This document shows positions 40,435-53,712 of a stretch of 64,000 bases of DNA, piece by piece. Position 1 is the stretch's first letter. Each line of letters opens with the position of its first letter. This stretch comes from Maribellus sediminis (GTDB lineage Bacteria; Bacteroidota; Bacteroidia; Bacteroidales; Prolixibacteraceae). Below the pieces are notes generated by a model. That model was not told the origin of the DNA. It worked only from the letters and a program-made list of their open reading frames with translations, and searched no databases. Made by a program: the position numbers and the translations under genes. The stretch spans positions 806,001 through 870,000 of the forward strand of contig NZ_WXUB01000001.1 of assembly GCF_011799805.1 (NCBI RefSeq), read 5' to 3'.

Positions 40435-40460
40435 ACGTATATCTAAATTATTATATACGT
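40435..40460 (+). promoter_or_regulatory. Inverted repeat upstream of the cytochrome cluster
   Basis: Perfect 8-bp arms ACGTATAT and ATATACGT are separated by 10 bases, 33 bp before the first ATG of the conduit genes. The position fits a regulator site overlapping the start of transcription. I cannot name the regulator. Confidence 0.4.
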
Positions 40461-40492
40461 AAATTTAAAGATCAATAAAAAACCAGGAACGG

Positions 40493-41362
40493 ATGGGGAG
40501 GTTGGCACACACTGTTTATCTGGCAGTCTTAACCGGAATTGTAGTATTCGTATTTATTACGCTGGCTTTTTATGGCCGGTCGTATTATACCACACCCTTT
40601 CATGAACGCCATTTCCACGAACAAAATGAGTTGCTGAAACCATCGGGTTTTGTTGGGCACGGAATTGGTATCGCCGGATCAGCTTTTATGGTTATCGGTG
40701 TTTTTGGCTACATGGCACGAAAACGCTTTCGACGCTTATCTCGTATTGGTATCCTTAAGCACTGGCTCGAATTTCATATTTTCCTTTGCACGCTCGGGCC
40801 CGTTCTGGTGCTTTACCACACTTCTTTCAAATTCGGCGGGATAGTTGCCGTTAGTTTCTGGAGCATGGTTGCCGTGGTTGTAAGTGGCATTATCGGCCGA
40901 TATATTTACCTGCAAATACCACGTACTATCGAAGGTCGCGAAATGAGCTTGAACGATCTGAATTCGATGGAAACAGATCTTTACGACCGCTTAAAAGATC
41001 AGTTTCAGGTTGCACCTCAAACACTGACGAAAATGAACACCGCATTGTTGCAGGCTGTGCAGCCAGAAGAAACGAATTACCTGATCCGTATCGTAAAACG
41101 ATTCCTCTTCGAACAAAAACTGGTCAGGCAGATCAAGCAGGAACTCAGGGATCAGGGAATAAAAGGAAGAAACATGCGGAAAGCTACCCGCATTTTCAAA
41201 TCGAAAATAATCCTGAACAGAAGGATCGCCTGGCTTTCGTCGATGCAGAATTTTCTGCGCTACTGGCATGTGGCTCATTTGCCATTTGCCTTGATTATGC
41301 TGGTAATTATGATTGTACACATCGTTATTGCAGCGCTTTTTGGTTACACCTGGATATTTTGA
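40493..41362 (+). CDS. Membrane cytochrome-b-like protein of the multihaem cluster
   Basis: A 289-residue membrane protein. Helices lie at about residues 9-27, 52-74, 90-108, 115-140 and 262-285, with an amphipathic charged segment (140-245) between the fourth and fifth. Histidines inside or near helices (H56, H90, H95, H109, H259, H262, H276) could bind two b-haems, and H95/H109 and H262/H276 are each 14 apart, the usual bis-haem spacing. It does not clearly match a named family. The stop overlaps the TTG-region of the next gene, with the ATG 2 bp later. An inner-membrane quinol or ferredoxin entry point is inferred from context. Confidence 0.7.
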   Translation: MGRLAHTVYLAVLTGIVVFVFITLAFYGRSYYTTPFHERHFHEQNELLKPSGFVGHGIGIAGSAFMVIGVFGYMARKRFRRLSRIGILKHWLEFHIFLCTLGPVLVLYHTSFKFGGIVAVSFWSMVAVVVSGIIGRYIYLQIPRTIEGREMSLNDLNSMETDLYDRLKDQFQVAPQTLTKMNTALLQAVQPEETNYLIRIVKRFLFEQKLVRQIKQELRDQGIKGRNMRKATRIFKSKIILNRRIAWLSSMQNFLRYWHVAHLPFALIMLVIMIVHIVIAALFGYTWIF

Positions 41363-41364
41363 AC

Positions 41365-42702
41365 ATGGAAAATTTCTTGGAAAAAATAATTATCTACGGT
41401 GCCGTCAGCATTTTCCTGATCGGCGTAGTTTATGTATATATCAGGAAGCTGCGTCGGGAGTCGAAAATTGTTGGTGAAAAGATCAGGGTTGCAAAAGAAG
41501 AAGGCCTGCACGAGCCGGTGTCGCTTCATCCGGTGGTGGATGTGAACTCGTGTATTCAGAGTGGTGCCTGCATCCGGGCTTGTCCCGAACACGATATTCT
41601 GGGCATTCAGAACGGAAAAGCTACAGTAATTAATGCCAGCCGCTGTGTGGGTCACGGCGCCTGTTTTCATGCCTGCCCTACACAGGCAATTTCACTTTTT
41701 ATCGGAACGGAAAAACGCGGCGTAGATCTGCCGCATGTAAATCAATTTTTCGAATCGAATGTCAAGGGCATTTTCATAGCAGGCGAAATGGGTGGCATGG
41801 GACTGATTAAAAATGCGGTTGAGCAGGGTCGACAAGCAGTTAATAATCTTGCCCGGGGAATTGACAAGAAAAGTGAAGAGGATTACGATCTGGTTATCGT
41901 TGGTGCCGGGCCTGCCGGTATCGCATCAACACTTGAGGCCCATCGTCTGAAGTTAAAAACCATCACGCTGGAACAGGATTCATTGGGTGGAACTGTTTCC
42001 AGTTTTCCCCGATCAAAAATTGTTATGACTTCTCCGATGGATCTGCCGCTACACGGAAAAGTAAAGCTCTTCGAAACCGGCAAGGCAGAATTGTTGGAGC
42101 TTTGGAACGAGGTGCTTTCAAAAAATGCCATTCAAATTGCAGAGAAAAAGAAAGTCGATCGCATCGTGCAGCAAAACGGCGGTTTCGAAGTACAGTGCAA
42201 CGACGGAAGCAACTTTTCTACCCAACGAGTATTATTGGCGATTGGAAGGAGAGGAACACCCCGAAAGCTCAATGTTCCGGGTGAACATCTGCCTAAAGTT
42301 TTTTACCGTTTACTGGAACCCGAGTTGATCCACAATAAAAATATACTGGTAGTGGGAGGTGGCGATTCGGCCATTGAATCGGCACTTCTGCTGGCTTTGC
42401 AGAATCAGGTTACGCTTTCATATCGAAAGGATACTTTCTCGCGATTAAAGTCTAAAAACAAACAGAATCTCGATACTGCGATTGCTGAAAAGCAATTTGA
42501 GGTGGTGCTGAATTCAAATGTGGTAAAGATTGAAAAGGATTCCGTTCTGCTTGAATTAAATGACCACGAAGAAATTTCAATTCCGAACGATCTGGTGTAC
42601 ATTTTTGCCGGAGGCGAGCTGCCAACCGACTTCCTGAAAAGTGCAGGCATTTTAATAACACGGAAGTTTGGTGAAGCAGTATTGAAACACGAAAAACGAT
42701 AA
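41365..42702 (+). CDS. Ferredoxin-fused flavoprotein (NAD(P)H oxidoreductase-like)
   Basis: A 445-residue protein. One N-terminal transmembrane helix (about 9-27) anchors it. A two-cluster ferredoxin-like domain has CIQSGACIRACP (C63, C69, C73) and CVGHGACFHACP (C94, C100, C104). In each motif the second ligand position is not Cys: it is Ser66 and His97. A two-Rossmann flavoprotein domain follows, with LVIVGAGPAG for FAD and ILVVGGGDSAIESA for NAD(P)H, in the thioredoxin-reductase/YpdA style but without the CxxC disulfide. It probably moves electrons between NAD(P)H and the membrane cytochromes. A TTG two codons earlier is an alternative start. The next gene starts directly after its stop. 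Confidence 0.82.
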   Translation: MENFLEKIIIYGAVSIFLIGVVYVYIRKLRRESKIVGEKIRVAKEEGLHEPVSLHPVVDVNSCIQSGACIRACPEHDILGIQNGKATVINASRCVGHGACFHACPTQAISLFIGTEKRGVDLPHVNQFFESNVKGIFIAGEMGGMGLIKNAVEQGRQAVNNLARGIDKKSEEDYDLVIVGAGPAGIASTLEAHRLKLKTITLEQDSLGGTVSSFPRSKIVMTSPMDLPLHGKVKLFETGKAELLELWNEVLSKNAIQIAEKKKVDRIVQQNGGFEVQCNDGSNFSTQRVLLAIGRRGTPRKLNVPGEHLPKVFYRLLEPELIHNKNILVVGGGDSAIESALLLALQNQVTLSYRKDTFSRLKSKNKQNLDTAIAEKQFEVVLNSNVVKIEKDSVLLELNDHEEISIPNDLVYIFAGGELPTDFLKSAGILITRKFGEAVLKHEKR

Positions 42703-44295
42703 ATGAACGGTGGATTAAAATATGGTGTAATATTTCTGTTGATGCTGGTGAATACCGCGTTACTGGCACAGATCTCGCCAGGCGAGCTTTCAAAAGCTCA
42801 TGCTCATCTCGAAGGTTTGACGAACTGCACCAAATGTCATGTTTTGGGTGAACAGGAAACAACTTCGAAATGCCTCGATTGCCACAAGGAGATCAAAGCT
42901 TTGATCGATCAGAACAAAGGTTATCATGCTTCGGTTGAGGCAAAAGGGAAGAAGTGTGCCCAATGTCACGGCGAGCATTTTGGACGCGATTTCAAAATTG
43001 TGCGTTTCGAGCCGGAGAATTTTGACCACCAGCTAGCAGGTTTTAAACTGGAGGGCAAACATGCTGCGATTAAATGCGCCGATTGCCATAAAGCAGAACT
43101 GATTGCCACAAAATTATCGCAAAAAAAGCAGCCGGGTACTTTTCTGGGAATGGGAACCGATTGTACTTCGTGTCATGAAGATGTGCATCAAAACACGCTT
43201 TCGAAAACCTGTACGCAATGCCACAGTCAGGATGCATTTAAACCGGCAACGGGTTTCGATCATTCAAAAACCGATTTTGTACTGATCGGGCAACACAAGG
43301 GAACAGCCTGTATAAAATGTCACCCTATCACCACACTCAACGAAAAGGAATTTCAGCAGTTTGCCGGCCTCGAATTTGGCACATGCACCAATTGTCACGA
43401 CGATGTACACGATAATAAATTTGGCTCGGATTGCCGGAAATGTCACAACGAATTTTCTTTTAAACAGGTAAATACAGCTTCCACTTTCAATCATAATCAC
43501 ACCGACTATCCTTTGCTGGGTAAACACCTTGGCGTGGATTGTAAAAGTTGCCACAAAAGCGGGAGTTATACACGGGCCTTAAAATTTCAGCGTTGCACCG
43601 ATTGCCACCGTGATTATCACGAAGGACAGTTGGCAAAAAAAGGTGTGTCGCCCGATTGCGAGTCCTGTCATTCAGTAAATGGATTTTCTACTTCGTCATA
43701 TTCAATCATGCGGCACAATCAAAGTCAGTTTGCACTGGAAGGGGCGCACATGGCCACACCGTGTTTTGCCTGCCACAAATCAGGTGAAAAATGGAATTTC
43801 AGCATTCCCGTAAATCGATGTGTCGACTGTCACGAAAACATTCATAGAGATGTGCTGGATAATAAGTACATGCCCGAATCGGATTGCAAGGCTTGTCATA
43901 ACAATGATGTATGGAAGCAAGTTTCATTCGACCATAACACCACCAATTTTAAACTTCTTGGAAAGCATGCACAGCAAACCTGCCGTGATTGTCATTTCCG
44001 GGAAAGCGATGGAATTGTAAAACAACAGTTTTCAACACTTTCTGAGAGTTGTGAAAACTGTCACGAGGATATTCATTTCAAACAATTTGAAGTACTGGGG
44101 AAAAATGATTGCACGCGTTGCCACACCTATAATAACTGGCTGCCCGACAAGTTCAATCATGCTGATGCGCGTTTCAAACTCGATGGGAAACACGAAGGCC
44201 TGCAATGTTTGGCCTGCCACAAGCCCACCGATGGATTGATCAGGAATTACATTGTTTACAAATTTGAAGACATATCATGCAAAAGTTGTCATTAA
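42703..44295 (+). CDS. 20-haem c-type cytochrome
   Basis: A 530-residue exported cytochrome. A Sec signal peptide (1-22) precedes 20 CXXCH haem-binding motifs, about one per 26 residues, with the last one (CKSCH) forming the very C-terminus. Spaced His residues (for example FDHQ, FDHS, FNHN, IHRD) would be distal ligands for low-spin bis-His haems. The pattern CADCHKAE, FKLEGKHAAIKC and similar resembles tandem cytochrome c3/c7-like repeats. It begins immediately at the flavoprotein stop and its end overlaps the next cytochrome by 19 bp. Its role as a periplasmic or outer-membrane electron wire is inferred from the cluster. Confidence 0.9.
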   Translation: MNGGLKYGVIFLLMLVNTALLAQISPGELSKAHAHLEGLTNCTKCHVLGEQETTSKCLDCHKEIKALIDQNKGYHASVEAKGKKCAQCHGEHFGRDFKIVRFEPENFDHQLAGFKLEGKHAAIKCADCHKAELIATKLSQKKQPGTFLGMGTDCTSCHEDVHQNTLSKTCTQCHSQDAFKPATGFDHSKTDFVLIGQHKGTACIKCHPITTLNEKEFQQFAGLEFGTCTNCHDDVHDNKFGSDCRKCHNEFSFKQVNTASTFNHNHTDYPLLGKHLGVDCKSCHKSGSYTRALKFQRCTDCHRDYHEGQLAKKGVSPDCESCHSVNGFSTSSYSIMRHNQSQFALEGAHMATPCFACHKSGEKWNFSIPVNRCVDCHENIHRDVLDNKYMPESDCKACHNNDVWKQVSFDHNTTNFKLLGKHAQQTCRDCHFRESDGIVKQQFSTLSESCENCHEDIHFKQFEVLGKNDCTRCHTYNNWLPDKFNHADARFKLDGKHEGLQCLACHKPTDGLIRNYIVYKFEDISCKSCH

Positions 44296-47200
44296 TGCTT
44301 TTGATTGTATTCTGGGCTTTGTCGGTAAAGGCGCAGGATAATCCGCATGGCGACGATCTGAAGTTTGACTGTTTGGATTGCCACACCACCGAAGGCTGGA
44401 TCTTTTCTGCAGCCACTGCGAAGTTCGATCACAATAAAACCACTTTCAAGTTGGAAGGTCAGCACGTGGCGACGGATTGTAAAGCCTGTCATTCGAGCCT
44501 TGTTTTTTCAGAAGCCAAAACCAACTGCATGGATTGCCACACCGATATGCATAACACTACCCTGGGAATGGACTGCGCACGTTGTCACGACCCGAAATCG
44601 TGGCTGGTTTCAAACATTACCGAAATACACCAGGCAAGCCGGTTTCCTTTGCTGGGAGCACATAATACTGCCGATTGTGCCGACTGCCACACCTCGGCTT
44701 CGAAGCTCGAGTTTCAGCCACTTGGCATAGAGTGTATCGATTGTCACCGGCAGGATTACGAAGCCACTACCAATCCGAATCATGCCCAGGCGGGCTTGTC
44801 AACCGATTGTATTGAGTGTCACAAAATCGATGCTTTTTCATGGAGCTCTCAAGGCTTTAACCACGACTTTTTCCCGTTGAGTAAGGGGCACGAAATTAAT
44901 GATTGTGCGGCCTGTCATACTGCCGGAGTTTTTGAGCCCATTTCTTCGGATTGTTACTCGTGTCATCAAAACGATTATTTAACTGCCGCCAATCCATCGC
45001 ATCAGAATTCCGGCTTTACTACAACTTGCACTGATTGTCATACCACAGCCCCCGGCTGGCAACCTGCTAAATTTGATATTCACGACGATTATTATTTTCC
45101 GATTTTCTCAGGTAAACACCGTGGCGAGTGGGAGAGCTGCACCGATTGTCACACCCAACCCGAAAGCTACGCCGTTTTTAGTTGTACCGGTTGTCACGAG
45201 CACAACCAGAACAAAATGGATGATGAACACCGCGGTATTAACGGGTACTCCTACAATAGCTTAGCTTGTTATGCTTGCCACCCGATGGGAAGGGAAGAAG
45301 GAGCATTTAATCACGAAACCACAGGTTTTTCGTTGAAAGGGGCACATGTCCAAACCGATTGTCTGGAGTGTCACTCCAATGGTTTTTCAGGTACATCAAA
45401 CGAATGTGCAAGTTGTCATATCAATAGTTATAATGAAGCCGCAAACCCGGTGCATCTTACAGCCGGAATTTCCACCGAGTGTCAGGTCTGCCATACTGAA
45501 GAAGGTTGGATTCCATCGCAATTCGATCATACTGCAACCAGTGGGTTTGAACTCACAGGTGGCCATTCAGGAAGACAATGTGCCGACTGCCACCTTGGAA
45601 CCACAACGGCTGCGAGTTCAGAATGCATTACCTGCCACCAGGCCAATTTCAATGAAGCACCCAATCATCTGGCGCAGAATTATCCAACTGAATGTTTGCA
45701 ATGCCACACGGTGAACAGTTGGGAGGCCGTGAATTTTGATCATAACCTGACGAACTTTCCGTTGACTGGAGCACATATTGCCACGGAGTGTTCGGCGTGC
45801 CACTCCGATGGTTACACCGGTACTTCGATGCTGTGTAATTCGTGCCATGCAGAGAATTACAACCAGGCACAAAATCCGATACACAGTACTGCCGGATTAT
45901 CTACCGAATGTGAAAACTGCCATACCACCACCGCGTGGATTCCATCGCAATTTGACCATACAGCAACCAGTGGTTTTGAACTTACTGGCGGCCATTCAGG
46001 AAGACAATGTGCCGACTGCCACCTTGGAACCACAACTGCTGCAAGTTCAGAATGCATTTCCTGTCATCAGGCTAATTTCAACAGTGCGCCCAATCATTTG
46101 GCACAGAATTATCCAACCGAATGTTTGCAATGCCACACTGTGAACAGTTGGGAGGCTGTTAATTTTGATCATAACCTGACGAACTTCCCCTTGACCGGAG
46201 CACATATTGCTACCGAATGTTCGGCGTGCCACACCGATGGTTATACCGGGACTTCGATGTTGTGTAATTCTTGTCATGCAGAGAATTATAACCAGGCACA
46301 AAATCCAATACACAGCACCGCCGGATTATCTACCGAATGTGAAAACTGCCATACCACGACCGCCTGGATTCCATCGCAATTCGATCATACTGCAACCAGT
46401 GGGTTTGAACTCACAGGTGGCCATTCAGGAAGACAATGTGCCGACTGCCATCTGGGAACAACAAGTGCAGCGAGTTCAGAATGCATTTCCTGTCACCAGG
46501 CTAATTTCAACAATGCGCCCAACCATTTGACACAGAATTATCCAACCGAATGTTTGCAGTGCCATACCGTTAACAGTTGGGACGCTGTGAATTTCGATCA
46601 TAGCCTGACGAACTTCCCGCTCACCGGAGCACACATTGCCACGGAATGTTCGGCTTGCCATACCGATGGTTATACCGGTACCTCGATGCTGTGCAATTCG
46701 TGCCATGATGATAATTATAACCAGGCACAAAATCCGATACACAGTACTGCCGGATTATCTACCGAATGTGAAAACTGCCATACCACCACCGCGTGGATTC
46801 CATCGCAATTCGACCATACTGTGACCAGTGGATTTGAACTCACTGGCGGCCATTCCGAAAGACAGTGTGCTGACTGCCACCTTGGAACCACAACGGCTGC
46901 GAGTTCAGAATGCATTACCTGCCATCAGGCGAATTTCAACAATGCGCCCAACCATTTGACACAGAATTATCCAACCGAATGTTTGCAATGCCACACGGTT
47001 AACAGTTGGGATGCTGTAAATTTTGATCATAACCTAACGAATTTCGCGCTTACCGGAGCACATATTGCCACAGAATGTTCGGCATGCCATTCCGATGGTT
47101 ATACCGGGACTTCAATGTTGTGCAGCGCTTGTCATACAGCGGATTACAACGCAAGTATAAACCCAAGTCACGGATCACTGGGGCTCTCTACTTCCTGCGA

Positions 47201-47696
47201 TGATTGTCATACCACTAACCCGGGGTGGGAGCCTGCGCTGTTTCCAAATCACAACGATTATTATGCGCTGAATGGTGATCATGCAACGGTTGCAAGTAAT
47301 TGCTTTTTATGTCACGAGGGAAATTATTCAAACACGCCGAACACCTGTTACGGGTGTCATGCCTCAGATTATAATACTACTACAGACCCTTCTCACCTGG
47401 CGGCAAACTTTCCAACCGAGTGTCAAACTTGTCATACGGAAACGGCCTGGGTGCCTTCTACTTTTGATCACGACGGGCAATATTTCCCCATTTACAGCGG
47501 ACGTCACAATGGCGCTTGGAACTCCTGTGCCGATTGTCATACGCAGGCTACAAATTATGCTGTGTTCTCGTGTATTACCTGTCACGAACACAATCAAACT
47601 GAAACCGACAGCCGTCATACTGATGTGAGCGAATATGTATATACAGCAACCAGTTGCTTTGATTGTCACCCGAATGGATTTGCCGGAGATGATTAG
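44277..47696 (+). CDS. 46-haem c-type cytochrome with tandem repeats
   Basis: An 1139-residue exported cytochrome with a Sec signal peptide (1-19). I count 46 CXXCH motifs, about one per 25 residues, among the larger multihaem proteins. Residues 411-948 contain nearly four copies of a 143-residue unit with six haem sites each (CADCH, CITCH/CISCH, CLQCH, CSACH, CNSCH, CENCH), 429 bp per unit in the DNA. The flanks hold divergent copies of the same design, and segments around 270-300 and 1085-1115 (FPIFSGKHRGEWESCTDC and its later relative) suggest an older duplication. Its start overlaps the 20-haem gene by 19 bp; its end overlaps the porin gene by 8 bp. No lipobox or T9SS tail is seen. Confidence 0.9.
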   Translation: MQKLSLMLLIVFWALSVKAQDNPHGDDLKFDCLDCHTTEGWIFSAATAKFDHNKTTFKLEGQHVATDCKACHSSLVFSEAKTNCMDCHTDMHNTTLGMDCARCHDPKSWLVSNITEIHQASRFPLLGAHNTADCADCHTSASKLEFQPLGIECIDCHRQDYEATTNPNHAQAGLSTDCIECHKIDAFSWSSQGFNHDFFPLSKGHEINDCAACHTAGVFEPISSDCYSCHQNDYLTAANPSHQNSGFTTTCTDCHTTAPGWQPAKFDIHDDYYFPIFSGKHRGEWESCTDCHTQPESYAVFSCTGCHEHNQNKMDDEHRGINGYSYNSLACYACHPMGREEGAFNHETTGFSLKGAHVQTDCLECHSNGFSGTSNECASCHINSYNEAANPVHLTAGISTECQVCHTEEGWIPSQFDHTATSGFELTGGHSGRQCADCHLGTTTAASSECITCHQANFNEAPNHLAQNYPTECLQCHTVNSWEAVNFDHNLTNFPLTGAHIATECSACHSDGYTGTSMLCNSCHAENYNQAQNPIHSTAGLSTECENCHTTTAWIPSQFDHTATSGFELTGGHSGRQCADCHLGTTTAASSECISCHQANFNSAPNHLAQNYPTECLQCHTVNSWEAVNFDHNLTNFPLTGAHIATECSACHTDGYTGTSMLCNSCHAENYNQAQNPIHSTAGLSTECENCHTTTAWIPSQFDHTATSGFELTGGHSGRQCADCHLGTTSAASSECISCHQANFNNAPNHLTQNYPTECLQCHTVNSWDAVNFDHSLTNFPLTGAHIATECSACHTDGYTGTSMLCNSCHDDNYNQAQNPIHSTAGLSTECENCHTTTAWIPSQFDHTVTSGFELTGGHSERQCADCHLGTTTAASSECITCHQANFNNAPNHLTQNYPTECLQCHTVNSWDAVNFDHNLTNFALTGAHIATECSACHSDGYTGTSMLCSACHTADYNASINPSHGSLGLSTSCDDCHTTNPGWEPALFPNHNDYYALNGDHATVASNCFLCHEGNYSNTPNTCYGCHASDYNTTTDPSHLAANFPTECQTCHTETAWVPSTFDHDGQYFPIYSGRHNGAWNSCADCHTQATNYAVFSCITCHEHNQTETDSRHTDVSEYVYTATSCFDCHPNGFAGDD
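45507..47120 (+). repeat. 429-bp tandem repeat inside the 46-haem cytochrome gene
   Basis: Units begin at 45507, 45936, 46365 and 46794, exactly 429 bp (143 codons) apart. Units 1-3 are full and unit 4 stops near 47120. Nucleotide identity is high, so slippage or recombination can add or drop six haems without a frameshift. Confidence 0.95.
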
Positions 47697-49308
47697 CCGA
47701 ATTCCACATAGAAGCTCGTTGGTTTTGCTGATACTGTTTTTTTGCGGGATCATAAATGGCTATTCACAGGAAAAGTACAGGCAGGGAACTGTTTCGTATA
47801 TCAGTGGCGATAACATTTATGTGAAGTTTGAAACCACGGCCGGAATTGAAAACGGGGATACGCTTTTTGTATTTAAGGAACAGGCATACATACCGGCACT
47901 GGTAGTTCAGCATCAATCTTCCATTTCGTGTTTATGTACTGCCCTTGGAGACCTCACTTTCAAAACATCGGATTTGATTTTTAATCGCGAAAAGTCTTTG
48001 CCGAAAAGCGATGTTATTCCCGTTATTGCTGAGCAGGAACTTCCTGAAAAGGATGTGAGCCAGCAAGTGTTGACAGCGACGGAACCAACAAATCAGAAAA
48101 AAAATACGCCGGATTTTTCAGGGAAATTGCGTTTATCGTCATACTCCAATTTCTCGAATGTATCGGACGATATGCATCGCTTTCGTTACACATTTTCGGC
48201 ACTGGCTTCGAATGTTTCAGGTTCAAATCTCTCTGCCGAAACCTATATTTCGTTTACCCATAAATTGAACGAATGGGACGTGGTGAAAGAGAACCTGAAC
48301 GATGCACTTAAAATTTACAGCCTGGCCCTGCGCTACGATTTCACAGAATCAACTTCGCTGTGGCTGGGGCGTAAAATAAATCCACACGTAGCCAATGTTG
48401 GTGCAGTGGATGGTATTCAGTTTGAATACGATTTCAAGAATTTCTACGCGGGTATTATTGCCGGATCGCGCCCCGATTATTACGATTATGGCTATAATTT
48501 CGATCTGTTTGAATATGGTGCCTATTTCGGCCACAGCCGGAAGGTTGAGCATGGTTTTGTGCAGTCGTCGCTGGCTTTTTTCGAACAGCGAAATGCGGGA
48601 AATGTTGATCGCCGCTTTGCTTATTTTCAGCACACCAACTCAGCCGTTAAAAATCTGAATCTTTTTACTTCCTTCGAAATCGATTTGTATAAACTCGAAA
48701 ACAATCAACCCAAAAATACGCTGAGTCTTACCAGTTTATATTTGTCGGCGAATTACCGTTTTTCAAGGCAGTTGTCGCTGTTTGCTTCTTACGATAACCG
48801 GAAGAATGTGATCTACTACGAAACGTTCAGAAACATAACCGACGAAATTCTTCAGCAGGCAAGCCGGCAGGGAGTACGGGTTCGCATGAATTTCCGCCCC
48901 ATAAATTACCTGATCGTAAGTGCCAGCGCTGGCACGCGTTTCAGTGAAAACGATCCGAGACCTACCAAAACAGTAAATGGTTTTGTTACCTGGTCCCGGT
49001 TGCCAGGAATAAATGCGTCTTTAAGTTTAAGCGGAAACCTGATGCAAACCAGCTACCTCGATGGCCAGGTGTACGGTGCACGGTTGTCGAAAGATCTGAT
49101 TGACGGGAAGTTGTATTCCATGCTTTATTACAGGTGGGTTGATTTCAACTATGTCAATTCTCTTTCAAGTTTGAAACAACACATCGGAGAGATCGATTTT
49201 TCTTATCGATTCAACAAAAATTTTTACTTCTCTGTTAACTTTGAAGCCACTATTCAGGAAAAAGATATTTTTAATCGGTTATATTTAAGCCTGAGAAAGA
49301 ATTTTTAG
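47689..49308 (+). CDS. Outer-membrane beta-barrel (porin of a cytochrome conduit, predicted)
   Basis: A 539-residue outer-membrane protein. The Sec signal peptide (MISRIPHRSSLVLLILFFCGIINGYSQ) begins at the ATG at 47689; the longer frame from 47635 lies inside the cytochrome gene. After a periplasmic SH3-like region (SYISGDNIYVKFETTAGIENGD) and a linker, residues 150-539 alternate hydrophobic and polar residues in many amphipathic strands, ending in LYLSLRKNF with a terminal Phe, the outer-membrane insertion signal. No MtrB-type CxxC is seen. By position right after two giant cytochromes it is the likely porin sleeve of a conduit. It overlaps the cytochrome stop by 8 bp. Confidence 0.75.
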   Translation: MISRIPHRSSLVLLILFFCGIINGYSQEKYRQGTVSYISGDNIYVKFETTAGIENGDTLFVFKEQAYIPALVVQHQSSISCLCTALGDLTFKTSDLIFNREKSLPKSDVIPVIAEQELPEKDVSQQVLTATEPTNQKKNTPDFSGKLRLSSYSNFSNVSDDMHRFRYTFSALASNVSGSNLSAETYISFTHKLNEWDVVKENLNDALKIYSLALRYDFTESTSLWLGRKINPHVANVGAVDGIQFEYDFKNFYAGIIAGSRPDYYDYGYNFDLFEYGAYFGHSRKVEHGFVQSSLAFFEQRNAGNVDRRFAYFQHTNSAVKNLNLFTSFEIDLYKLENNQPKNTLSLTSLYLSANYRFSRQLSLFASYDNRKNVIYYETFRNITDEILQQASRQGVRVRMNFRPINYLIVSASAGTRFSENDPRPTKTVNGFVTWSRLPGINASLSLSGNLMQTSYLDGQVYGARLSKDLIDGKLYSMLYYRWVDFNYVNSLSSLKQHIGEIDFSYRFNKNFYFSVNFEATIQEKDIFNRLYLSLRKNF

Positions 49309-49341
49309 AATAGAGGAGTTTAATTTATTAAATAGTGCAAA

Positions 49342-50076
49342 ATGTATAAAACAAGATTATTCTTTTTGGTGATTTTAGTGATCGTATTTTCATCATGTGT
49401 CCGCAATAAAAATCCGCAGCAAATGCAGCAAAGCGTGATTCAACCAACAAATCAACATGTTTTTGAAATAAGCGAAGTGATTCAGGGAAACACCTACACT
49501 TACCTTAAGGTGAAAGAGAACATGATGGAGCGCTGGGTGGCTATCGGTAAAAAAGACGTGAATAAAGGCGATGTATTGTATTACGATGAAGCTTTGCAAA
49601 TGACCGATTTTCACAGTAAAGAAATCGATCGGACTTTCGATGTGATTTATTTTGTGAACCAGGTGAGCACAACACCTTTGAATCAGCAACCCGCAATGAC
49701 TGGTGGAATGCCATCGGCGCATAAAGGTAAAGTAAGTGCAAGCGATGCAGAAGTTGAAATTGACAAGCCGGAGGGTGAATTAAGTATTGCCGATGTGTAT
49801 GCCAACAAGGCCGATTACAGCAGCAAAGAATTTGAAATACGCGGAGTTGTAGTAAAAGTGAACGATCAGGTGATGGGTAAAAACTGGGTGCATATTCAGG
49901 ATGGAACCGGAACCAGTGGAAATTTCGATTTGACTATAACCACGGAAGCTGTTGTAAAGGTTGGCGACGAAGTTGTTTTTAAAGGGAAACTTACTTTGAA
50001 TAAGGATTTTGGTGCCGGTTATTTCTACGATTTAATCATGGAAGACGGTACTTTGGTCAGCAAAAAGGTTTCGTAA
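49342..50076 (+). CDS. OB-fold-like lipoprotein of the multihaem cluster
   Basis: A 244-residue lipoprotein with lipobox Cys19 (VFSSC). Two copies of a small beta-barrel are suggested: residues 42-110 (YTYLKVKENMMERWVAIG) and 148-240 (SIADVYANKADYSSKEFEIRG, WVHIQDGTG, GDEVVFKGKL). The second matches the OB-fold protein often found beside nitrite reductase and multihaem cytochrome genes (NrfJ-like). It may bind haem, nucleotides or a cytochrome; this is not known. It starts 34 bp after the porin gene and closes the cluster. A similar OB protein beside a conduit supports the assignment of the neighbours. Confidence 0.72.
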   Translation: MYKTRLFFLVILVIVFSSCVRNKNPQQMQQSVIQPTNQHVFEISEVIQGNTYTYLKVKENMMERWVAIGKKDVNKGDVLYYDEALQMTDFHSKEIDRTFDVIYFVNQVSTTPLNQQPAMTGGMPSAHKGKVSASDAEVEIDKPEGELSIADVYANKADYSSKEFEIRGVVVKVNDQVMGKNWVHIQDGTGTSGNFDLTITTEAVVKVGDEVVFKGKLTLNKDFGAGYFYDLIMEDGTLVSKKVS

Positions 50077-50539: not shown

Positions 50540-52294
50540 ATGAAGAAATTAGTAGTTATCATTGGCACTTTCTTAATCCTCATGTCCTGCTCTAATCCAA
50601 ACAGCGAACACCAGAAGAAAAAAAATCTTACTCCTGAGGAACAAAAAATGGAGTGGTGGACCGACGCCCGTTTCGGGATGTTTATTCACTGGGGCCTGTA
50701 TGCTGAGCCAGCCGGAGAATGGAAAGGTGAACGTATTCCGGGAATTAGTGAATGGATAATGTGCAATGCAAAAATTCCGGTAAAAGAATACGAAAAGCTG
50801 GCTGAAACTTTTAATCCGGTTAAATTCAATGCCGATGAATGGGTGAAACTGGCCAAATTTGCGGGGATGAAATACATCGTAATCACCTCAAAGCATCACG
50901 ATGGATTTGCCATGTATCATTCTTTGGCCAGCAAGTATAATATCGTTGATGCCACACCTTTCACACGTGATCCGCTAAAAGAATTGGCCGATGCCTGTAA
51001 AAAGTACGATATGCGGCTTGGGTTTTATTACTCGCAGGCACAGGACTGGCACGAGCCGGGCGGAACTTACCGTGGTTACGACGAAGGTAAGCCTCACTGG
51101 GATCCGGATCTTGTACGCGAACCATTTATGGATTATATTGAAGGGAAAGCCATTCCGCAGGTAAAAGAAATTTTGGAAAATTATGGTGGCCTCGATATAC
51201 TTTGGTGGGATACCCCGTTTGGCATGACCGAAGAAGCGGCTGAAAAACTAAAAGCAATAACCGATGATTATCCAAAACTGATTACCAATAACCGATTATA
51301 CAGACCCTGGCCGGGCGATTTTTCGACGCCTGAACAGTATGTACCGCCAACAGGGCTCGATTATAACTGGGAAGTGTGTATGACCATGAACACAAGCTGG
51401 GGCTACAAGTGGTACGACGATAACTGGAAATCGTCGGAAGATTTGATTCGCATGCTGGTTGATATTGCGAGTAAAGGCGGTAATTTCTTGTTGAATGTTG
51501 GCCCTACCGCTGAGGGTGAGTTTCCGGAGCCGAGCGTAGAACGACTTAAAGCAATCGGGACCTGGATGCAAAAAAATGGCGAATCGGTTTACGGTACTTC
51601 CGCGAGTCCGTTTTTTAAGCTGCCGTGGGGGCGTTGCACGGTTAAAAAAGTAAGAGGTGGAACAAATTTTTACCTGCATGTGTTCGACTGGCCCAAAAAC
51701 GGTTTGCTCACCGTGCCGGGTTTCAAGGCAAACGTGAAGGATATTTATCTGCTTTCGAATTCAAACCAGCATTTTGCCTGGAAATTTGATGGGAATAACC
51801 TGGATATTCATGCACCTTCAGTGATCTTCGATGAGGTGAATACCGTAGTGGTAGTGAAGGTAAAAGGACAATATATTGTTGAAAGTAACAAGCCGACTCT
51901 GTTTAATGGCAGCATATTGTTACCGGCCGATTTTGCCGATGTTTATAATCCGGGGTATGGCAGTCATGCTAAGATAGAAGGACAAGGAACAAAATCAGTT
52001 ATTTCAAACTGGGTTGACGGCCGCTCGAAGCTAAAGTGGATTTTTGATGTAAGCGAGCCCGGGAAATACAGGGTAGAAACATTGGTGAATGCTGAAAGTA
52101 GTTCAGGTTTGAACATGGAGATTGGTGACAACAAAATAGCTTCAGAAATTCGTTCAACCGACGGCAAATTTGACGTAGTGAAGCTCGGTGAAATCGAGAT
52201 TAGTGAAACCGGAGATCACATGATTTCCCTGGTCCCCGATCGCGAAAACTGGAATGGTGCCGAGCTGATGTACCTTGAACTGATTAAACTTTAG
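50540..52294 (+). CDS. GH29 alpha-L-fucosidase lipoprotein
   Basis: A 584-residue exo-fucosidase that removes terminal alpha-L-fucose. The lipobox (LMSC, Cys17) places it on the cell surface or in the periplasm. The GH29 barrel starts at WWTDARFGMFIHWGLYAEPAG and has the substrate-binding ITSKHHDGFAMY. The catalytic nucleophile is Asp222 in LDILWWDTPFG. A C-terminal beta-sandwich domain (residues about 460-584, SKPTLFNGSILLPADFADV) could bind carbohydrate. The sulfatase gene is convergent and overlaps by 4 bp; together they suit a sulfated fucan or fucose-containing polymer. Confidence 0.93.
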   Translation: MKKLVVIIGTFLILMSCSNPNSEHQKKKNLTPEEQKMEWWTDARFGMFIHWGLYAEPAGEWKGERIPGISEWIMCNAKIPVKEYEKLAETFNPVKFNADEWVKLAKFAGMKYIVITSKHHDGFAMYHSLASKYNIVDATPFTRDPLKELADACKKYDMRLGFYYSQAQDWHEPGGTYRGYDEGKPHWDPDLVREPFMDYIEGKAIPQVKEILENYGGLDILWWDTPFGMTEEAAEKLKAITDDYPKLITNNRLYRPWPGDFSTPEQYVPPTGLDYNWEVCMTMNTSWGYKWYDDNWKSSEDLIRMLVDIASKGGNFLLNVGPTAEGEFPEPSVERLKAIGTWMQKNGESVYGTSASPFFKLPWGRCTVKKVRGGTNFYLHVFDWPKNGLLTVPGFKANVKDIYLLSNSNQHFAWKFDGNNLDIHAPSVIFDEVNTVVVVKVKGQYIVESNKPTLFNGSILLPADFADVYNPGYGSHAKIEGQGTKSVISNWVDGRSKLKWIFDVSEPGKYRVETLVNAESSSGLNMEIGDNKIASEIRSTDGKFDVVKLGEIEISETGDHMISLVPDRENWNGAELMYLELIKL

Positions 52295-53712
52295 TCGCGC
52301 GGTGCATAGTCGTGATTGGGCACAGGAAACTGTGCATTCGTTTCGGATAAACGTGCTTCCAGCAATTTTTGCAATTCCCTAACTTTCTCCGGATTTTGTT
52401 CGGCTATATTAGTCGATTCTCCCGGATCATTGGCGAGGTTGTATAATTCCACATGATCATCTTCGTAAAAAAGTACCAGTTTCCAGTCACCTTTTCTGAT
52501 GGCCGATCCCGGAGTCCAGGCACTGCCGTGGTAATGCGGGTAATGCCAGAATAATTCGTCACGATTTAGACTTCCCTCGTTGGTGAGAATTGGTAAGAGA
52601 TTCTCCCCGTCGTTATCCTCATGTTCTATTTCAGCCAGATTCAAAATGGTAGTAAAATAATCCATACTAATGGCGGGTGTTTCAGTGCTTCTTCCCGGTT
52701 CAGCCACCTCGGGGCCGGCAATGATCAACGGCACCCGAATCCCGCCTTCGTAACACCAGCCTTTGCCGGCGCGCAACGGCCCGTTGCTTGTTGGAGCATT
52801 GGGGCGGTACAATGTCGATAATCCACCGTTATCGCTTGTGAAAATCACCCATGTATTTTCGTCGAGACCTTGTTCTTTCAGTGCTGCCAGGATTCTGCCG
52901 ACGTTCGCATCCATGGCATTTACCATCGAAGCATAGGGCGCATCTTCCTGCATCATTTTGGTCCAGCCTTCGCCTTCCTCGCGGAACGGAACGTCTTCAA
53001 TATTCATAGCTTCGCGCTTGGCTTCGTATTTTTCTATGCTCGATTTGGCTGCCTGGATAGGTGTATGAACAGTATAAAAAGCCAGGTATAAAAAGAAGGA
53101 ATTTTCTTTATTTTCGGTGATGAACTTGATCCCTTCATTCGTCAGGCGGTCGGTGAGGTACTCACCTTCGGGACCATCCGGAAGTTTCGGATTTTTGTAG
53201 GGCGAATAATAACCCCCCGGAGGATGCCCCATGTGATAACCGCCGATATTGATATCAAAACCCTGATCCTCGGGATAAAAACCTTCGCTGCCCAAATGCC
53301 ATTTTCCTATAAAACCGGTTTTATAGCCTTTCTCTTTTAGTTTTTCGGCAATTGTAATTTCATTCAGTGCCAGCTCGTCGGCATCCTGCGGACCCAGCAG
53401 CGGACGTTTTTTCGGATCGTTACCAGGGATCCAGTCAGTAATATTTACCCGGTTCGGGTGTTTGCCGGTCATTATAGCGGCACGTGTGGGGCTGCATACC
53501 GGGTTGGCCGCATAAGCCTGTGCAAAGCGCACGCCGCTTTTAGCCAGTTTATCGATGTTGGGTGTGTCGTAAAAACTTTCAGGATAATTGCATTTTACAT
53601 CGGCCCATCCCAGGTCGTCAACCAGAATGAATACAAAGTTGGGATCTTTCTTTTTTGAACAGGAAAGAATGCTAATGGCGATGATAAAAAGTAAAAATGC
53701 TTTACGAAACAT
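52291..53712 (-). CDS. Type I sulfatase lipoprotein
   Basis: A 473-residue sulfatase. The lipobox ends in ILSC (Cys18). The catalytic motif CSPTRAAIMTG carries the Cys that becomes formylglycine. Metal and sulfate ligands are visible in VFILVDDLGWAD, GFIGKWHLG and FTSDNGG. The length and ending match arylsulfatases of the S1 family; subfamily and substrate are not readable by eye. It needs a formylglycine-generating enzyme, which is not in the window. It is convergent with the GH29 fucosidase. Confidence 0.93.
   Translation of the reverse strand: MFRKAFLLFIIAISILSCSKKKDPNFVFILVDDLGWADVKCNYPESFYDTPNIDKLAKSGVRFAQAYAANPVCSPTRAAIMTGKHPNRVNITDWIPGNDPKKRPLLGPQDADELALNEITIAEKLKEKGYKTGFIGKWHLGSEGFYPEDQGFDINIGGYHMGHPPGGYYSPYKNPKLPDGPEGEYLTDRLTNEGIKFITENKENSFFLYLAFYTVHTPIQAAKSSIEKYEAKREAMNIEDVPFREEGEGWTKMMQEDAPYASMVNAMDANVGRILAALKEQGLDENTWVIFTSDNGGLSTLYRPNAPTSNGPLRAGKGWCYEGGIRVPLIIAGPEVAEPGRSTETPAISMDYFTTILNLAEIEHEDNDGENLLPILTNEGSLNRDELFWHYPHYHGSAWTPGSAIRKGDWKLVLFYEDDHVELYNLANDPGESTNIAEQNPEKVRELQKLLEARLSETNAQFPVPNHDYAPRD

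What the first reader, a model, noticed from the sequence alone, without database searches (positions are those of the whole stretch)
40435..50076. Six-gene porin-cytochrome conduit cluster with 66 c-type haem sites
Seen: five overlapping or near-overlapping genes plus a lipoprotein gene on one strand, encoding a His-rich membrane protein, a ferredoxin-flavoprotein, a 20-CXXCH and a 46-CXXCH exported cytochrome, a beta-barrel with a C-terminal Phe, and an OB-type lipoprotein. Known: porin-cytochrome complexes (MtrABC, Omb-Oma-Omc types) carry electrons across outer membranes. Inferred: this is a Bacteroidota conduit that joins NAD(P)H or quinol to an outside acceptor or donor, with a flavoprotein module I have not seen in described conduits.
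Basis: partly seen in the sequence, partly recalled or inferred. Interest (0 to 1): 0.9.

Follow-up and report, generated by a model that had tools for sequence, protein, structure and literature searches.

The report
Bacteroidota trans-envelope electron wire operon
Five linked genes, kept together in many Bacteroidota, look like a complete electrical wire from NAD(P)H inside the cell to the outside, with one near-constant 20-haem segment and one segment that evolution lengthens or shortens, mostly three haems at a time.

Summary
In detail: 20 + 46 CXXCH in a tight same-strand operon at 40493-50076. It is a conserved system. Of 70 distinct loci not near a locus end, 61 keep A-B-C-D-E(-F) and 7 have A-C-D-E-B. 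A is a 5-helix membrane protein with two invariant H-X13-H pairs; B a membrane-anchored FAD/NAD(P) enzyme with ferredoxin domain; C a cytochrome of 20 (sometimes 23) haems; D one of 10-88 haems; E a confidently modelled 22-strand barrel without a plug. E tracks A: of 61 relatives 24 have both, 34 neither; the 3 discordant genomes are 70-86% complete. 71 of 83 D proteins have 3n+1 haems; D's number changed at least 47 times over 68 tree rows. Best reading: NAD(P)H -> FAD/FeS -> two b haems -> C across the periplasm -> D through E -> outside. It works like a porin-cytochrome conduit; Mtr-family membership was not met by sequence, and Geobacter barrels were not compared. No binding, location or activity is shown. 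Putative Bacteroidetes conduits and giant Saprospiraceae cytochromes are in print; ten paper searches did not turn up this operon.

The parts
40493..41362 (+). Gene A: 5-helix inner-membrane protein, candidate di-b-haem cytochrome; invariant His 56, 95, 109, 259, 262, 276; H95/H109 and H262/H276 are H-X13-H pairs
   Evidence: each of the six His in 53 of 53 rows of A6; helices (weak model); DUF4405 hits in 37 and cytochrome b561 hits in 7 of 53 members, weak
41359..42702 (+). Gene B: N-terminal membrane anchor, two Fe-S motifs, FAD/NAD(P) pyridine nucleotide oxidoreductase domain (nearest YpdA-type)
   Evidence: the second position of both CxxCxxCxxxCP motifs is usually not Cys: S/H in 47, T/H in 38, C/H in 8, A/H in 1 of 94 B proteins of 380 aa or more from L084-L183
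42703..44295 (+). Gene C: exported 20-haem c-type cytochrome, haem number nearly constant
   Evidence: 20 haems in 65 and 23 in 8 of 77 C reading frames, the other four 19, 19, 14 and 5; nearest solved chain 3ov0 E 4.7e-7
44277..47696 (+). Gene D: exported 46-haem c-type cytochrome
44277..45311 (+). D part 1: 13-haem core shared with the 343-aa short forms
   Evidence: same 12 haem spacings in the window and in the 13-haem homologues; alignment of L042 with the window
45579..46865 (+). D part 2: three near-identical 143-aa six-haem units (two three-haem sub-units each), part of the longer repeat array
   Evidence: 92-98% aa and 88-90% nt identity between units
47635..49308 (+). Gene E: 22-strand outer-membrane beta-barrel, likely start ATG 47689, signal peptide, C-terminal Phe
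   Evidence: AlphaFold2 mean pLDDT 84.3, pTM 0.66; structural neighbours are outer-membrane barrels; no Pfam/NCBIfam family at E<=1
47767..47991 (+). E N-terminal small beta domain (mature residues 1-75), taken as periplasmic
   Evidence: strands 4-74; location inferred
48112..49302 (+). E barrel proper, 22 strands (mature residues 116-512)
   Evidence: strands counted from the listed elements
49342..50076 (+). Gene F: lipoprotein of unknown role, optional member
   Evidence: lipobox-like FSSC in the window; a lipobox pattern in 10 of 19 F homologues; found in 25 of the 61 A-B-C-D-E clusters not near an end

Best explanation
A-B-C-D-E is a self-contained trans-envelope electron wire. NAD(P)H is oxidised in the cytosol by B (FAD, then two Fe-S clusters), which is anchored to the inner membrane beside A. 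A carries the electrons across the inner membrane through two stacked b haems (H95-H262 near the cytosol, H109-H276 near the periplasm). C, a rod of about 20 bis-His haems, bridges the periplasm. The conserved 13-haem core of D sits in or under the plugless 22-strand barrel E and takes the electrons through the outer membrane; the extra three-haem repeats of D extend the wire beyond it. The acceptor outside is unknown (metal oxide, humic quinone, another cell). Shown: gene content, synteny, co-occurrence, haem counts, barrel model. Inferred: haem ligation, location of C and D, E-D contact, electron source, direction.
For: Synteny: 61 of 70 distinct unclipped loci are A-B-C-D-E(-F), 7 A-C-D-E-B. 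Barrel tied to A: of 61 relatives 24 have both, 34 neither, 3 discordant and 70-86% complete; in the phylum sample of 395, A in 42, E in 36, both in 35. E is a confident 22-strand barrel with no plug family matched. His content is close to two per haem (His minus 2n is 1-9 in 106 C and -1 to 6 in 99 of 101 D, outliers 9 and 17, duplicates of the same genomes included), as for all-bis-His electron carriers. D shows neither a lipobox (79 of 80) nor a long C-terminal tail (78 of 80 end within 21 residues of the last haem motif), so no surface-export signal of its own was seen. A has two H-X13-H pairs invariant in 53 of 53 rows; B has FAD, NAD(P) and Fe-S domains. C stays at 20 or 23 haems in 73 of 77 reading frames while D ranges widely, as expected if C spans a fixed gap and D ends free. 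The window's genome has two cytochrome-c assembly matches.
Against: No experiment. A's model is weak (pTM 0.47) and its fold searches were inconclusive; profile comparison gave only 19.6% probability with DUF4405 and 0.3% with ferric reductases, on rough alignments. No complex could be predicted. 22 strands (computed radius about 20 A with an assumed shear) is tighter than the 26 I recall for MtrB, so fit of a cytochrome is not assured. D lacks the surface lipid anchor usual in known conduits (PMC6148476 abstract). In some genomes the best E match is not beside A: on another contig in G382 and G142, about 20 kb off in G354. One genome has A and E without B, C and D at that place (L054). The genome also has three haem-copper oxidase genes, so the wire is not its only respiratory exit.
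Confidence: 0.57

Rival explanations
1. Periplasmic electron store: C and D act as a haem capacitor that absorbs NAD(P)H-derived electrons when acceptors run short; E is a pore or anchor and nothing leaves the cell.
For: D's haem number is hugely variable (10-88), which suits a store better than a fixed-gap bridge; no surface signal on D. PMC11495043 (passages) speculates on a capacitor role for giant secreted cytochromes.
Against: The barrel E follows A closely, which a pure store would not need; a 13-haem form occurs in 12 of 68 tree rows.
Confidence: 0.17
2. Quinone-linked conduit: A takes electrons from menaquinol rather than from B, and B is a side entry or a regulator.
For: Known inner-membrane partners of conduits are quinol oxidases (PMC6295460, passages); A has extra invariant His 56 and 259.
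Against: B is in 68 of 70 unclipped loci and carries NAD(P), FAD and Fe-S domains plus a membrane anchor.
Confidence: 0.2
3. Inward wire: electrons from an outside donor (Fe(II), metal, another cell) enter and reduce NAD(P)+.
For: Known conduits can be bidirectional (PMC8258643, passage).
Against: Delivery from such donors to NAD(P)+ is uphill in potential and against the membrane potential (general knowledge); no Cyc2-like gene was sought here.
Confidence: 0.08
4. Assimilatory surface ferric reductase for iron supply, not respiration.
For: NAD(P)H-flavin-b-haem modules serve ferric reduction elsewhere (recalled).
Against: 66 haem irons per set is a poor bargain for iron supply; none of the 14 largest neighbour families printed looks by eye like iron uptake.
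Confidence: 0.06

Closest known systems
MtrCAB / MtoAB / PioAB porin-cytochrome conduits
   Same: Barrel gene beside exported multihaem cytochrome genes; presumed path across the outer membrane
   Different: C matches the DmsE-family decahaem model far below its cut-off (49.6 vs 192.2 bits) and E matches no NCBIfam model at E<=1; 22 strands against 26 recalled; no lipoprotein cytochrome seen; inner-membrane NAD(P)H module in the operon
Geobacter Omb-Oma-Omc and Ext conduits
   Same: Barrel plus large cytochromes in one operon
   Different: Those carry outer-membrane redox lipoproteins (PMC6148476 abstract); C and D show no lipobox apart from 5 of 169 pattern hits. Direct sequence comparison with OmbB or Ext barrels was not made
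Three-haem c7-type nanowire cytochromes (chain 3ov0, which I recall as GSU1996)
   Same: C aligns to 3ov0 (E 4.7e-7); C and D hit Cytochrome_C7; D grows mostly in three-haem steps
   Different: Recalled Geobacter forms are stand-alone with 12 or 27 haems; here 10-88 haems and tied to a barrel
Giant Saprospiraceae cytochromes of activated sludge (PMC11495043) and putative Bacteroidetes porin-cytochrome clusters of Trout Bog (PMC6344600)
   Same: May include members of this system (inference): loci titled Saprospiraceae or Lewinella here carry D of 43 (L140), 61 (L151) and 82 haems (L169); Trout Bog reports a 51-haem conduit cytochrome on an unbinned contig
   Different: The passages I read describe neither the five-gene set, the A/B module nor the three-haem ladder; their supplements were not readable here

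Membership tests
Porin-cytochrome conduit (functional class) | Outer-membrane barrel gene next to exported multihaem cytochrome genes | tested here: met
Porin-cytochrome conduit (functional class) | Cytochrome physically inside the barrel; electron passage across the outer membrane | not testable with these tools
   complex prediction and assays not available
Porin-cytochrome conduit (functional class) | Outer-surface redox lipoprotein | tested here: not met
   pattern test on L084-L183: no lipobox before the first haem in 79 of 80 D and 85 of 89 C
MtrAB/MtoAB/PioAB | Periplasmic cytochrome of the MtrA/DmsE decahaem family | tested here: not met
   TIGR03508 49.6 bits for C, 60.3 for D, cut-off 192.2
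MtrAB/MtoAB/PioAB | Barrel of the MtrB/PioB family by sequence | tested here: not met
   E has no NCBIfam or Pfam match at E<=1; its profile finds six PDB sequences at E<=10, best 0.15, none an outer-membrane barrel
MtrAB/MtoAB/PioAB | Barrel fold of MtrB | tested here: inconclusive
   MtrB not among the 50 rows shown in each; absence there is no evidence
Geobacter Omb/Ext conduits | Homologous barrel (OmbB, ExtB/E, ExtI) | not tested
   no such sequence compared
Ferric reductase / NOX-type di-haem cytochromes | Two helices each with H-X13-H (recalled criterion) | tested here: met
   H95/H109 and H262/H276 invariant in 53 of 53 rows
Ferric reductase / NOX-type di-haem cytochromes | Sequence homology to PF01794 | tested here: inconclusive
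   no PF01794 hit for the window's A nor among the 25 of 48 families shown for 53 members; hhalign 0.3% on a rough alignment
Ferric reductase / NOX-type di-haem cytochromes | Fold | tested here: inconclusive
   low-confidence model; only generic helical matches shown
DUF4405 / cytochrome b561-like membrane proteins | Profile match | tested here: inconclusive
   DUF4405 in 37 and PF01292 in 7 of 53 at E<=1, best 2.2e-4 and 0.0069, neither for the window's A itself; hhalign 19.6% against 0.15% for a YitT control
YpdA bacillithiol disulfide reductase | TIGR04018 above cut-off | tested here: not met
   155.3 bits, cut-off 339.9
Three-haem nanowire cytochromes | Tandem three-haem units | tested here: met
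   D haem number 3n+1 in 71 of 83; spacings
Three-haem nanowire cytochromes | TIGR04257 above its cut-off | tested here: not met
   22.3 (C) and 27.6 bits (D), cut-off 40

The most novel reading that the evidence does not exclude
A Bacteroidota-wide wire in which cytosolic NAD(P)H is connected directly to the outside without the quinone pool: a flavo-iron-sulfur/b-haem relay, a near-fixed 20-haem periplasm bridge and a plugless 22-strand barrel holding a cytochrome whose outer part is a length-tunable nanowire, lengthened and shortened in three-haem steps by tandem duplication and loss, from about 10 to about 90 nm.
Probability: 0.33. Interest if true: 0.9.

Novelty: new variant of a known kind. 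Interest (0 to 1): 0.72.

Why it matters

Tried and rejected
Rejected: chance motifs (no other frame in the window has two CXXCH). Rejected: E as an unrelated barrel (co-occurrence). Rejected: E as a TonB receptor, since no plug or receptor family matched, although its fold neighbours include such receptors. Rejected: MtrA/DmsE and YpdA membership (below cut-off). Rejected: F as a core part.

Led nowhere: sequence search of the PDB with A, E and D; Foldseek and VIA-align with A's model, where the 50 rows shown were generic helical proteins; MtrB was not among the 50 rows shown for E. Foldseek TM-scores for E were low (TMq at most 0.50 in the rows shown). Ten paper searches did not turn up a description of this operon; the library is open-access papers only, supplements were not readable, and I read passages, abstracts and one results section, not whole papers.

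Limits of counts: the 80 loci are the best of 483, so biased to close relatives. One search started from 120 loci, kept 109 as distinct and set 39 aside as near an end; F and divergent E or B are called by BLAST at 1e-5 and can be missed. Its 83 D proteins come from the 76 loci with A, C, D and E, unclipped and of at least 8 haems. One search counts reading frames of L084-L183 only, near-duplicates and fragments included. One search used 68 rows, dropping loci with two D genes, clipped D, or short A or B; its tree is FastTree with 21 open forks, so 47 and 9 hold for that tree. A6 has 53 rows (52 of 80 A homologues plus the window), A5 48 rows (47 of 48 E homologues plus the window). Against the ladder: 12 of 83 D do not fit 3n+1 (six of the eleven loci are one lake clade, L125, L130, L132, L139, L143, L154; L049 and L102 are frames that overlap). 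Some short forms could be assembly collapse, but 13 and 28 haems occur in single-contig genomes (G008, G013). The last haems of short D were not consistently nearer to the internal or the terminal cap of long D, so the direction of change is open. The highest between-species unit identity (0.98) exceeds the within-species mean.
Full report
What is there. The window lies in a 5.6-Mb, 99.96% complete genome of 13 contigs. Six genes run on one strand: A 40493-41362, B 41359-42702, C 42703-44295, D 44277-47696, E 47635-49308 (likely start 47689) and F 49342-50076. C holds 20 and D 46 CXXCH; no other frame in the window holds two. In one search the nearest named carriers include Draconibacterium, Maribellus and Mariniphaga, all Prolixibacteraceae, Marinilabiliales.

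Conservation. In 20 loci fetched from the same genus and order, 19 keep A-B-C-D-E and one (L054) has A cut short and running into E with B, C and D missing. Over 109 distinct loci, 70 were not near an end: 36 A-B-C-D-E, 25 A-B-C-D-E-F, 7 A-C-D-E-B, 1 A-E-F (L054), 1 with A alone. The last is L091; in its genome (G354) an E lies about 20 kb away on the same contig. A profile of A finds 42 of 395 genomes of the phylum; E finds 36 of 395, of which 35 also have A. The single E-only case is a 30-residue match with a stop codon inside. Of the seven A-only genomes two have only a partial, weak A match, two have a divergent E beside the cluster (L099, L100) and three were not examined further. E is not always beside A: in G382 and G142 the best E match is on another contig. 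In 61 relatives A is in 25, E in 26 and both in 24; the discordant three are 70, 75 and 86% complete.

A. Five helices, with positive loops placing the N-terminus and the long 140-257 stretch in the cytosol (my reading of the sequence). His 56, 95, 109, 259, 262 and 276 are invariant in 53 of 53 rows. H95/H109 and H262/H276 are both H-X13-H, the arrangement I recall for ferric reductase and NADPH oxidase di-haem cores. Homology to them was not shown: PF01794 was not among the families shown, and hhalign gave 0.3%; DUF4405 is the nearest, weakly. The fold search was inconclusive.

B. An N-terminal membrane anchor, two Fe-S motifs and a pyridine-nucleotide oxidoreductase domain. The Fe-S motifs keep three Cys each; the second position is Ser or Thr in the first motif and His in the second in 85 of 94 homologues (S/H 47, T/H 38), with C/H in 8 and A/H in 1, so unusual ligation is possible. 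The YpdA model is far below cut-off.

C and D. Both match Cytochrome_C7; C's nearest solved chain is 3ov0. Total His is close to twice the haem number, so all haems can be bis-His, fit for transfer rather than catalysis. C has 20 haems in 65 and 23 in 8 of 77 reading frames. D is a ladder: a 13-haem core of fixed spacings, alone in short forms, followed in long forms by units of about 72 residues and three haems. In the window three 143-residue double units are 92-98% identical in protein. Within-genome units average 0.87 identity (32 pairs) against 0.73 between genomes (319 pairs, maximum 0.98), a sign of recent duplication or conversion. Haem number fits 3n+1 in 71 of 83 D proteins, protein length rises 24.6 residues per haem, and haem number changed at least 47 times over 68 rows, with at least 9 switches between 13 and any other number. 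Close pairs differ: C 93% identical with D of 40 and 28 haems (L041, L044). The largest D has 88 haems in 2204 residues (L175, titled uncultured Bacteroidetes); on the A+B tree it pairs with a Saprospiraceae MAG (L169, 82 haems).

E. AlphaFold2 with 48 sequences gives mean pLDDT 84.3: a small N-terminal beta domain, a disordered linker and 22 strands (my count from the listed elements). Its structural neighbours are outer-membrane barrels: OprD/Occ porins, TonB receptors and pilus ushers (strand numbers of 18, 22 and 24 recalled). No plug family matched. An open 22-strand lumen would leak, so a guest is likely, and the guests on hand are C and D. This is inference.

How it most likely works. 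NAD(P)H to FAD and Fe-S in B, to b haems in A, to C, to D, through E. At about 1 nm per haem (recalled for the 12-haem, 12-nm nanowire protein) C would span about 20 nm, near a periplasm's width, and D about 10 to 88 nm. A near-fixed C and a free-length D fit a bridge and an outward extension. D shows no lipobox (79 of 80) and no long C-terminal tail (78 of 80 within 21 residues), so it would have to reach the outside through or with E. Outward flow is favoured because NAD(P)+ reduction from outside donors is uphill.

Context. The genome has two cytochrome-c assembly matches and three COX1 genes, so the organism probably also respires oxygen. A wire for electron overflow or low-oxygen life is plausible.

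What is known. Putative novel porin-cytochrome clusters in Bacteroidetes and a 51-haem conduit cytochrome on an unbinned contig were reported from Trout Bog (PMC6344600, passages). Saprospiraceae proteins with very many haem motifs were reported from sludge, with a capacitor idea (PMC11495043, passages). An uncharacterised Bacteroidetes cluster of seven genes, six of them multihaem cytochromes, was reported from an anode community (PMC8258643, passages); its make-up differs from this one. MHCscan surveyed about 60,000 genomes (PMC11475568, abstract passage and results section); the main text has no word beginning with 'bacteroid'. PMC7399161 (passages) calls haem-number variation among homologues unexplored. 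Ten paper searches did not turn up this operon; that is not proof of absence.

Verdict. Real, conserved and coherent; works like a porin-cytochrome conduit, with an added NAD(P)H module and a variable wire; not a member of the MtrAB family by the sequence tests made; function untested.

Noticed in passing
L054 3300-3520: Gene A is cut near codon 137 and runs straight into a later part of E, with B, C and D missing: an internal deletion of the operon or a misassembly in a 350-contig genome.
   Followed up: partly
L094-L096, L098-L103: A second architecture, A-C-D-E-B, with B moved behind E, and E only 22-24% identical to the window's.
   Followed up: partly
17 loci, e.g. L085 12523-13113: A short TPR-like protein with an N-terminal anchor recurs near A, in several clusters between A and B.
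   Followed up: no
L122, L131, L136, L145, L153: A small cytochrome b561-like membrane protein (by eye) recurs within about 6 kb upstream of A in five loci.
   Followed up: no
L166, L169: Two contigs of one Saprospiraceae MAG both carry A-B-C-D, with D of at least 72 haems (clipped) and of 82 haems.
   Followed up: no
G000 contig 6, 1079374-1088901: Several Cytochrome_C7-like frames close to a cytochrome-c assembly match, perhaps an alternative complex III locus.
   Followed up: no
window 41359-42702 (B) and homologues: His in place of the second Cys of the second Fe-S motif in 94 of 94 B homologues counted, while the first motif varies Ser/Thr/Cys/Ala.
   Followed up: partly
window 50540-53712: A gene (50540-52294) whose homologue follows the operon in four of the 20 fetched relatives (L035-L038), then a sulfatase-like gene (by eye) on the other strand.
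   Followed up: no
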